Part shown: in pieces, positions 61,849 to 64,000 of the stretch | How the letters are laid out: every line of letters starts with the position of its first letter | Numbering within the stretch: the stretch's first letter is position 1 | Source: Candidatus Thorarchaeota archaeon | GTDB taxonomy: Archaea; Asgardarchaeota; Thorarchaeia; Thorarchaeales; Thorarchaeaceae | Assembly: GCA_021498125.1 (NCBI GenBank) | Contig: JAIZWL010000001.1 | Coordinates: 1,023,434 to 1,087,433 of the forward strand | DNA length: 64,000 bases | Direction: 5' to 3' | The notes under the pieces: model-generated | What the model was told of the DNA's origin: nothing | Database searches by the model: none | What the model saw: only the letters and a program-made list of their open reading frames with translations | Program-made: the position numbers and the translations under genes

Positions 61849-62112
61849 ATGGTCAAAGCATATGTTCTGATCAAGATGGAGAGCGGCAAAGAAGAAGAGG
61901 TCACACGCGAGATACTGGACCTCCCCGTCACTGAAGAGGCCCATACGGTCTTTGGCGAGTTCGACTTGGTCGTAGAGATTCGTGGGCGCGATATGGAGAC
62001 CCTTGTCGAGTTTATTACTCAGCGCATCAGACGGATTCCCGGTATTGCAGACACACAGACACTCTTGGTTGTTGACGTAGAACTTGATATGACCTCACGT
62101 CTTGCCTCGTAG
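61849..62112 (+). CDS. Stand-alone Lrp/AsnC ligand-binding (RAM) domain protein
   Basis: An 87-residue protein that consists only of the RAM (alpha-beta sandwich) domain of Lrp/AsnC regulators, without an HTH: VKAYVLIKMESGKEEEVTREI, AHTVFGEFDLVVEIRGRDMETLVEFI, IPGIADTQTLLVVDVE. Such proteins bind amino acids as octamers and can modulate full Lrp regulators. The ATG at 61849 has GGTGAT about 7 nt upstream, and a longer frame upstream is not supported. A partner could be the Lrp/AsnC regulator at 45.6 kb. Confidence 0.85.
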   Translation: MVKAYVLIKMESGKEEEVTREILDLPVTEEAHTVFGEFDLVVEIRGRDMETLVEFITQRIRRIPGIADTQTLLVVDVELDMTSRLAS

Positions 62113-62230
62113 TTGGTTCATCCGCGATTCTGTTAAAAGCACGAACAGCCTCTATCAGAATTGGGACCAACACATACGGAGAGTGTAAGGGATTCCGGTC
62201 AAGACATTATCAAGAAAGCCATTTCTACTT

Positions 62231-63001
62231 ATGCTTCAAGATGACGCGGGCGTACTCTCTGAGGTACGTCTTGATTCCAGCTTGGTCAATAGTGATACGG
62301 CTGTGATTCTGCTCGATGAATATAACGATACATGTTGGGTCTGGGTCGGTAAGAATGTAAATATGCCCACCCGCATGCATACATTGCGAATGGCGCGAGC
62401 AGTTCAGAAGAGTGGGCACCAAGTGGGTGTCACGACAATTGGACGCTCCACATCCAAGTTTGTAGAGATGATGGAGAAGGATGCCGGGGACCCAGAGGTG
62501 GCTGCTAACATCAATACTTTCAAAGAGATCCTCTCCAAACCTTGGAAGTTTGAAGATGAGGTTCTTGCTTATGATGAGGCGCTTGCTGCTCAGTATGAGG
62601 CAGCCCCTGTAAAGATCCGCGATACGGCTGTGAGTAGCGCACCATCACCGCCACCTGCCAAGACAAAATCCGCTCCAGCAACGAGACCACCTCCTCCGCC
62701 TCCACCGCCGAAGACCGCTCCGGCTGCTAAGGCAAGGACGGCACCCGCACCTTCAGGAGGTCTGGCTGAACACAAGATTGCATATCTTCTCTATGCAGTA
62801 GTGAAGAACTCTGACCTTGTCTATACTGAGCGGTTCACCCGTGGTGGTAAACTGGGAATCAAGATCGAGTCGCCGGGCACAATGGTCATTGAGGCACTTC
62901 TTGATGGCGATGAACTCCGCATTAACCCTCCTGAGTTTGGCGACAATGCTGATGCCAAGAAGATCAAGACCGACTACGAGTCTTGGACCGCAAAGTTGTA
63001 A
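62231..63001 (+). CDS. Gelsolin-like domain protein with polyproline linker
   Basis: An actin-regulatory-type protein of 256 residues. Residues 20-110 match a gelsolin-like domain: TAVILLDEYNDTCWVWVG, then KNVNMPTRMHTLRMARAVQ as the long helix, and GHQVGVTTIGRSTSKFVEMM. A linker (about 135-175) contains eight consecutive prolines (153-160). The last 75 residues form a separate alpha/beta domain that I do not recognise (HKIAYLLYAVVKNSDLVYTE). Asgard gelsolins are known to act on actin, and the polyproline stretch could recruit profilin. This is the clearest cytoskeletal gene here. Start: ATG at 62231, no strong ribosome site. Confidence 0.85.
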   Translation: MLQDDAGVLSEVRLDSSLVNSDTAVILLDEYNDTCWVWVGKNVNMPTRMHTLRMARAVQKSGHQVGVTTIGRSTSKFVEMMEKDAGDPEVAANINTFKEILSKPWKFEDEVLAYDEALAAQYEAAPVKIRDTAVSSAPSPPPAKTKSAPATRPPPPPPPPKTAPAAKARTAPAPSGGLAEHKIAYLLYAVVKNSDLVYTERFTRGGKLGIKIESPGTMVIEALLDGDELRINPPEFGDNADAKKIKTDYESWTAKL

Positions 63002-63017
63002 ACGACTATTCGGGGGC

Positions 63018-63797
63018 TCACTTGGTGAGACTCCCATCCTCGCTATTTTTTAATAATCTATACCAATACGTATAGACTGTGGCAAACCCCATCTGCTCGT
63101 ACAGTTTGATTGCAGGAATGTTATCGGTCTCAACCTGTAGATAGGCCTGTCTTGCCCCGACAGACTCACCCCATGAGATCAACGCTTTGCTCACTGCTGT
63201 GGCAGCACCCCTTCGTCTGAATTCTTTTCGCGTCGCTATGCCGAAGAGGCCAACCCATTCGCCAGTCACAACTCCAAATCCCACGGCTGCTGGTGTACCA
63301 TCTACCTTGGCAAGTGCATACCCCTTATGATCCCTTACCCGCTCCATGATCTTTAGTCGTGCATGGATTGACTGCTCTGAGTATCCTGTTGCTTGAGTAT
63401 AACCTCTCATCCATTCTTTATCTGGTGTGGGTGTTACAGATGATTTCGCTTCGGTTTTGGCTGATCTGGTCTTTGAGGTCTCGATGGTCTGTACATGAAC
63501 AGTCAGCTCCCTCTCGTACCCCATCGACTCTAGCACATCATCAAGTTCCTGTGGTTGGCTTGCCTCTGTCATTTGATAGTAGATAGGTAACCCCCGCTTG
63601 GTATAGAAGCGTGCTGCTTCTTCAATTGCTCTCTCAAGTGACGACCCCTCAAATCGGGTTGGGAGAACGCTATTCGCTCTTCTCGTTATTCCCATATCTG
63701 CTCTCAGAATCCACCCATATAGCGCGACCTCTTCACGAGCAGGCCACGCACGAGATCCGGTCTTTTCGAGTTCTATAATGAGTTCAGAGTTGGTCAT
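63018..63797 (-). CDS. GNAT-family N-acetyltransferase
   Basis: A 259-residue protein with a complete C-terminal GNAT domain: EWVGLFGIATRKEFRRRGAATAVSKAL carries the acetyl-CoA loop (R-R-x-G-x-A), followed by AYLQVETDNIPAIKLYEQMGF and YTYWYRLL, the standard GNAT end. The N-terminal half (about 1-130) is shaped like a degenerate second GNAT domain. The ATG at 63797 is chosen because upstream reading frames overlap the divergent galT gene. Substrate unknown. Confidence 0.85.
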   Translation of the reverse strand: MTNSELIIELEKTGSRAWPAREEVALYGWILRADMGITRRANSVLPTRFEGSSLERAIEEAARFYTKRGLPIYYQMTEASQPQELDDVLESMGYERELTVHVQTIETSKTRSAKTEAKSSVTPTPDKEWMRGYTQATGYSEQSIHARLKIMERVRDHKGYALAKVDGTPAAVGFGVVTGEWVGLFGIATRKEFRRRGAATAVSKALISWGESVGARQAYLQVETDNIPAIKLYEQMGFATVYTYWYRLLKNSEDGSLTK

Positions 63798-63898
63798 TGT
63801 AGTTTCTCGATACCCATACGTAATCTTAATCTCATCGCTAGTGGCGTTGCCGAATGATTCTAATTGTTCTCTATTCCCCTTAGGATGAGGTCGTGCGT

Positions 63899-64000
63899 GT
63901 GAGCACTCTACGATGGAATCTTCTGCTTGGCGAATGGGTGATCGTGACACCGGGTCGTGCTGCAAGACCCTTTCAAGACCCTGATCGTCATTGCCCATTT
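63899..64000 (+). CDS. galT: Galactose-1-phosphate uridylyltransferase, 5' end only
   Basis: The first 34 codons of galT run to the end of the window. The GTG start at 63899 has GAGGT 7 nt upstream. The peptide reads STLRWNLLLGEWVIVTPGRA and then ARPFQDPDRHCPF, matching the GalT N-terminus (RWNPLTGEWVxVSPHRxxRP, followed by the zinc-binding C-P-x-C). GalT makes UDP-galactose and glucose-1-P in the Leloir pathway. The galactokinase-like gene at 35.8 kb may be its partner, though it is far away. Confidence 0.75.
   Translation, partial: MSTLRWNLLLGEWVIVTPGRAARPFQDPDRHCPF

What the first reader, a model, noticed from the sequence alone, without database searches (positions are those of the whole stretch)
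62231..63001. Gelsolin-like domain joined by eight prolines to an unknown C-terminal domain
Most Asgard gelsolins described have one or two gelsolin domains. Here one domain is linked by P8 to a 75-residue alpha/beta domain. A polyproline linker could dock profilin, allowing one protein to bring profilin-actin and gelsolin activities together.
Basis: partly seen in the sequence, partly recalled or inferred. Interest (0 to 1): 0.65.

Follow-up and report, generated by a model that had tools for sequence, protein, structure and literature searches.

The report
Asgard one-domain gelsolin with partner domain
A Thorarchaeota gene encodes an actin-regulator-like (gelsolin) domain joined by a loose proline-rich string to a small domain found only in Asgard archaea; the protein is widespread and conserved, but the eight-proline run that caught the eye occurs only in this species, and the gene seems to start at an unusual AUU codon.

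Summary
The ORF is real. It encodes one gelsolin-fold domain, a disordered Pro-rich linker carrying P8, and a confident alpha-beta4-alpha C-terminal domain ("X"). X is not a degenerate gelsolin repeat: its topology differs and profile-profile probability is 0.5%. The architecture is not peculiar to this genome. It is a single-copy orthologue in Thorarchaeota (41 of 47 genomes, all 13 high-quality ones), with homologues of the same layout in other Asgard families. It probably corresponds to the named but uncharacterised "1DGelX" class. P8 is a real outlier in this genome (the only run of 5 or more prolines in 368 gene proxies), but it is not conserved: 28 of 30 Thor orthologues have no run above three. 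A profilin dock can therefore be at most a lineage-specific extra. I propose a calcium-independent actin-binding (ProGel-like) domain flexibly tethered to an Asgard-specific partner-binding domain; actin binding is inferred, not shown. In the two Odinarchaeota-like genomes checked, the gene sits beside the profilin gene. That is perhaps the most surprising point.

The parts
62178..62181 (+). Shine-Dalgarno-like GGAG, 10 nt before the ATT; most orthologues have GGAGG 8 nt before it
   Evidence: sequence; spacing table in orthologues
62192..62230 (+). N-terminal extension IPVKTLSRKPFLL beginning at a putative ATT (AUU) start codon; its end is part of the first beta strand
   Evidence: in-frame and conserved in 38 Thor loci; third-position divergence 0.55 against 0.13 at second position, flat upstream; strand E12-18 in the model
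62222..62590 (+). gelsolin-like domain (residues 11-133 of the extended protein)
   Evidence: AF2 pLDDT about 95; Foldseek to gelsolins and ThorProGel; hhalign to Asgard 2DGel/ProGel prob 96.7, E 3e-10
62591..62746 (+). flexible proline-rich linker, predicted disordered
   Evidence: pLDDT about 60; 31% Pro, low conservation
62687..62710 (+). P8 tract, species-specific
   Evidence: only run of 5 or more prolines in 368 gene proxies; absent from orthologues
62747..62998 (+). domain X: alpha-beta4-alpha, Asgard-specific as far as searched
   Evidence: AF2 pLDDT 94.3, pTM 0.84; found in 111 of 180 Asgard genomes; Thor against non-Thor hhalign prob 95
61849..62112 (+). conserved upstream neighbour: stand-alone Lrp/AsnC ligand-binding domain (start taken at ATG 61849)
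   Evidence: Pfam PF01037; same position in most Thor loci
63018..63998 (-). conserved convergent downstream neighbour: GNAT acetyltransferase (Rv0428c-like)
   Evidence: Pfam; synteny

Best explanation
This is the Thorarchaeota orthologue of an Asgard-wide '1DGelX'-type protein. An N-terminal, calcium-independent gelsolin/ProGel-like domain binds actin (inferred), and a long disordered Pro-rich tether (42-105 residues in orthologues) links it to domain X, which binds a second, unknown partner or itself. The tether lets one molecule connect an actin subunit or filament to whatever X binds, so it works as an adaptor or linker and not as a calcium-triggered severing machine. The proline-rich character serves mainly as an extended spacer; in this species the P8 run could in addition be a weak profilin site. 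Shown here: the domain architecture, its conservation and distribution, the loss of the Ca-site glutamate, and coexistence with actin, profilin, 2DGel and ProGel. Inferred: actin binding, partner binding by X, and the role of the tether.
For: Gelsolin homology: Foldseek top hits are gelsolins, with ThorProGel-actin 7c2f at TMt 0.79; hhalign 96.7% against Asgard 2DGel/ProGel; one f4 homologue reaches the Pfam gelsolin cut-off. The long helix after the W-x-G motif (PTRMHALRM), the equivalent of gelsolin's actin-contacting helix, is the best conserved stretch, with T60, R61, M62, H63 and R66 invariant in 30 orthologues. The Ca-site Glu present in both domains of this genome's 2DGel is Thr in all 30, as it is lost in ProGel. 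The gene is single-copy and retained in 41 of 47 Thor genomes and 13 of 13 high-quality ones; domain X is found in 111 of 180 Asgard genomes, in ORFs of about 240-364 aa apart from short contig-edge frames. In both Odinarchaeota-like genomes the gene is the convergent neighbour (19-28 nt) of a profilin gene; in one the product matches PDB 5zza. Two folded domains and a disordered linker.
Against: No actin complex could be modelled or assayed. The gelsolin domain also resembles the Sec23 gelsolin domain, which, as far as I know, is not an actin binder. Profilin adjacency is seen in one genus only. No partner of X is known and its fold has no PDB match, so 'partner binding' is a generic guess.
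Confidence: 0.5

Rival explanations
1. One reading: the polyproline tract docks profilin-actin, so the protein combines profilin-actin recruitment with gelsolin activity, as Ena/VASP or formins do.
For: P8 is unique among 368 gene proxies here. The genome has tandem profilins, the first 70% identical to a Thor profilin matching 7pbh, and a Thor profilin binds VASP polyproline at about 250-500 uM (PMC8410842). In Odinarchaeota-like genomes the gene neighbours profilin.
Against: Runs of 5 or more prolines in only 2 of 30 orthologues; 28 have at most 3, and neither of the two other genus members aligned here exceeds 3. [quoted passage not shown]
Confidence: 0.15
2. The gelsolin fold has been repurposed, as in Sec23/24: the protein is an adaptor or scaffold with no actin role.
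For: Sec23 gelsolin-domain structures match with E-values comparable to gelsolins. Sequence divergence from 2DGel/ProGel is high: below the Pfam cut-off in the window. The WH2-like L(K/R)(K/R)(V/T) motif of 2DGels is absent from all 30 linkers.
Against: Profilin neighbourhood in Odinarchaeota-like genomes; conserved equivalent of the actin-contacting helix; best domain-length structural match is ThorProGel bound to actin.
Confidence: 0.25
3. The C-terminal part is a degenerate second gelsolin repeat (a diverged 2DGel).
For: Size is similar to a gelsolin repeat and 2DGels are common in these genomes.
Against: Topology is H-EEEE-H; no gelsolin among the 50 best Foldseek matches of X; hhalign of X against gelsolin profiles 0.5% and 0.2%.
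Confidence: 0.02

Closest known systems
Asgard 1DGelX (named in PMC9433394, citing Akil et al. 2020 PNAS)
   Same: By its name and the counts given (two in Prometheoarchaeum MK-D1, three in Loki GC14_75), a one-gelsolin-domain Asgard class distinct from 2DGel and ProGel; the architecture here fits that name
   Different: The defining paper is not held, so identity with this family could not be checked; no function or structure has been found for it
Thorarchaeota ProGel (PDB 7c2f)
   Same: Single gelsolin/cofilin-like domain, no Ca-site Glu, TM 0.79 to our domain
   Different: ProGel is about 94 aa, with no linker or domain X; this genome encodes ProGel separately
Asgard 2DGel (7c2g, 7whf, 7whg)
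   Same: Gelsolin family, Asgard, actin regulators
   Different: Two gelsolin domains, Ca-binding residues and a WH2-like LRRV motif; the protein here has one domain, no Ca-site Glu and no LRRV motif
Ena/VASP and formin proline-rich regions
   Same: Polyproline of a kind that binds profilin, beside an actin-binding module
   Different: P8 is not conserved; no EVH1, FH2 or WH2 element was recognised; the fold is gelsolin-like
E. coli infC (IF3) AUU start, from my own knowledge
   Same: Conserved AUU start codon with a good Shine-Dalgarno sequence, not a general start codon in the genome
   Different: A gelsolin-like gene in an archaeon, not an initiation factor; no evidence yet of autoregulation

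Membership tests
Gelsolin family (PF00626) | Gelsolin fold | tested here: met
   AF2 + Foldseek, top matches gelsolins, prob 1.00
Gelsolin family (PF00626) | Pfam profile score above gathering cut-off (21 bits) | tested here: not met
   14.3-14.5 bits in the window protein; an f4 homologue just reaches 21.0
Gelsolin family (PF00626) | Profile-profile homology to bona fide Asgard gelsolins | tested here: met
   hhalign prob 96.7, E 3.2e-10 over 52 columns
Calcium-regulated gelsolins | Type II Ca-site glutamate in the long helix | tested here: not met
   Thr60 in 30 of 30 orthologues, Glu in both 2DGel domains of the same genome
2DGel | Two gelsolin domains | tested here: not met
   X unrelated to gelsolin
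1DGelX | One gelsolin domain joined to a non-gelsolin domain X | tested here: inconclusive
   Architecture fits, but the defining paper is not held, so it is unknown whether its X is this X
Actin-binding proteins | Binds or regulates actin | not testable with these tools
   Needs an assay or complex modelling
Profilin-docking polyproline proteins | Uninterrupted polyproline run (5 or more), conserved in orthologues | tested here: not met
   Present here (P8), absent from 28 of 30 orthologues
Profilin-docking polyproline proteins | Host encodes a profilin of the polyproline-binding type | tested here: met
   Tandem profilins, the first 70% identical to a Thor profilin matching 7pbh; Thor profilin binding data in PMC8410842

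The most novel reading that the evidence does not exclude
In Thorarchaeota this gene is initiated at an AUU codon (GUU in one genus) conserved across nine genera at Shine-Dalgarno spacing, although the genome otherwise shows no excess of such starts. The weak start codon would make output of this actin adaptor depend on initiation-factor stringency, as infC does for IF3. Its domain X would be an Asgard-only partner domain of the actin system.
Probability: 0.35. Interest if true: 0.7.

Novelty: new member of a known kind. Interest (0 to 1): 0.45.

Why it matters
[quoted passage not shown] Biochemical work so far has covered 2DGel, ProGel and profilin. This family is widely kept across Asgard lineages, carries a domain seen nowhere else in the searches made, and lacks the calcium site, so it is a tractable untested component. 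The probable AUU start means that gene calls limited to ATG, GTG and TTG starts would truncate these proteins in about half of the Thor loci examined, and that is directly testable.

Tried and rejected
(1) X as a second gelsolin repeat: rejected. (2) X as a known Pfam, PDB or viral fold: no significant match; weak hits to Ralstonia lectin, Utp9 and others are below significance. (3) P8 as a conserved feature: rejected. (4) A DNA-pattern search for X in viral contigs could not be run because the alignment is too diverse. (5) PF00235 missed this genome's profilins; a Thor profilin query found them. (6) AUU as a general Thor start codon: a tally after GGAGG gave 39 canonical, 14 without any start and 10 near-cognate starts, the near-cognates at roughly the chance level by my estimate. 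(7) An apparent internal stop in the actin hit was checked: a single intact 368-aa actin ORF.

Full report
WHAT IS THERE. The ORF at 62231-63001 is real. The window comes from a Thorarchaeota-type Asgard genome: all 14 named relatives found are Thorarchaeota or an unnamed archaeon MAG of the same family. The protein has a gelsolin-like domain, a Pro-rich linker containing P8 (62687-62710), and a C-terminal domain of about 80 residues (X).

THE START. The same peptide, (I/M)PxKTLSRKPFML, precedes the Met in Thor orthologues. Codons K4-L13 diverge mainly at third positions (0.25, 0.13, 0.55 differences per site at codon positions 1, 2, 3), while the 30 nt further upstream diverge evenly (0.69, 0.70, 0.65), so the stretch is translated. 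A strong GGAGG lies 8 nt before an in-frame ATT in most genera that lack ATG, GTG or TTG there. ATT sits at 8-10 nt spacing in genera g1, g2, g3, g4, g7, g9, g10, g12 and g13; g11 has GTT, g8 has ATG, and most g5 members have ATG 11-12 nt from the SD, with an ATT or ATA 6-9 nt from it in most. In the window the SD is GGAG at 62178, 10 nt before ATT 62192. A tally of GGAGG-led ORFs in 404 kb of this genome gives 39 canonical starts and no clear excess of near-cognate ones, so AUU is not a general start codon there. Several other Asgard homologues also appear to lack an ATG at this place, using TTG or GTG or having only ATA/ATT. Archaeal aIF1 is reported to discriminate against non-AUG starts (PMC6237735), which makes regulation conceivable; that step is speculation.

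DOMAIN 1. Pfam gelsolin scores 14.5 bits, below the 21-bit cut-off. AF2 with 30 orthologues gives pLDDT about 95, and the PDB search returns gelsolins, fragmin, severin, villin and, with the best domain-length match, ThorProGel bound to actin (7c2f, TMt 0.79); Sec23 follows. A profile of 23 Asgard family members aligns with a profile of 2DGel/ProGel domains at 96.7% probability, E 3e-10, and one f4 homologue just reaches the Pfam cut-off. It is therefore a divergent member of the gelsolin family. The Ca-site glutamate in the helix (DEKF and REKF in this genome's 2DGel) is Thr60 in all 30 Thor orthologues. The helix itself (PTRMHALRM) is the best conserved stretch.

LINKER. Lengths run from 42 to 105 residues with 13-36% proline. 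Longest Pro run: 1-3 residues in 28 of 30 orthologues, 6 in one, 8 here. In this genome it is nevertheless exceptional: the most Pro-rich 50-mer of 368 gene proxies and the only run of 5 or more prolines. P8 is thus a real but recent, species-level feature on a conserved Pro-rich tether.

DOMAIN X. AF2 on 52 family members gives pLDDT 94.3 and pTM 0.84, topology alpha-beta4-alpha. There is no significant PDB, viral-structure, Pfam or PDB-sequence match. It is not gelsolin (hhalign 0.5% and 0.2%). Thor and non-Thor versions, aligned independently, match at 95%, E 3.5e-8 over 80 columns. X is found in 111 of 180 Asgard genomes at least 80% complete, in ORFs of about 240-364 aa apart from a few short contig-edge frames. 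The roughly 30 ORFs read out in full nearly all carry gelsolin-like domain, low-complexity linker and X. Whether X occurs outside Asgard was not tested beyond one genome scan with the single sequence, which found Thorarchaeota only.

DISTRIBUTION AND CONTEXT. Single-copy in 41 of 47 genomes of the family and in 13 of 13 good ones; an HMM finds it in 108 of 197 Asgard genomes, with no match in listed members of some families such as f17. Upstream lies an Lrp/AsnC ligand-binding ORF and downstream a convergent GNAT gene, both conserved in most Thor loci. The genome also has one actin, 2DGel and ProGel, and tandem profilins, the first 70% identical to a Thor profilin matching 7pbh. In two genomes of family f3 the gene is the immediate convergent neighbour of profilin; in one of them that profilin matches PDB 5zza, the Odinarchaeota profilin from my own knowledge. 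This is the best genomic hint that the family belongs to the actin-profilin system, but it comes from one genus.

MECHANISM. Most likely a calcium-independent actin-binding domain tethered to a second binding domain: an adaptor. Shown: architecture, conservation, loss of the Ca-site Glu, genomic company. Inferred: actin binding and the partner of X. Profilin docking by P8 is possible in this species only; a Thor profilin binds VASP polyproline with Kd about 250-500 uM (PMC8410842).

COMPARISON. PMC9433394 counts '1DGelX' proteins in Loki genomes separately from 2DGel and ProGel, without describing function in the passages read. The present family fits the name, but the defining paper is not in the library, so membership stays unproven. 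Verdict: a genuine, widespread, uncharacterised member of a known kind. The AUU start and the orphan domain X are the points worth following.

Noticed in passing
62178-62230 (+) and the same place in about 20 Thor orthologues (e.g. L017, L021, L054): Conserved non-canonical ATT (GTT in g11) start codon with strong Shine-Dalgarno spacing; gene callers limited to ATG/GTG/TTG would place the start 39 nt too late.
   Followed up: yes
L079:3762-4929 and L136:3282-4413: In both Odinarchaeota-like genomes the gelsolin+X gene is convergent with and 19-28 nt from a profilin gene; in L079 the profilin matches PDB 5zza.
   Followed up: partly
61849-62112 (+) and L134:2488-2721: A stand-alone Lrp/AsnC ligand-binding-type ORF lies next to both the gelsolin+X gene and the tandem profilin genes of this genome.
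   Followed up: no
G000:C3:105694-109939 (L155, L001): The single actin gene and the 2DGel gene lie within about 3 kb of each other.
   Followed up: no
L084 and L118 (family f9): Cluster of three related ORFs: two gelsolin+X proteins side by side and a divergent third gelsolin-like protein of about 320 aa on the other strand.
   Followed up: no
L171 (genome G029, family f6): A 219-aa ORF with one ProGel-like gelsolin domain, a linker and a different-looking C-terminal domain; possibly another one-domain-plus-partner architecture.
   Followed up: no
L073 (G054): Linker expanded to 105 residues by tandem repeats of a unit like EPIAGAPKPKPVYD, showing rapid length change of the tether.
   Followed up: no
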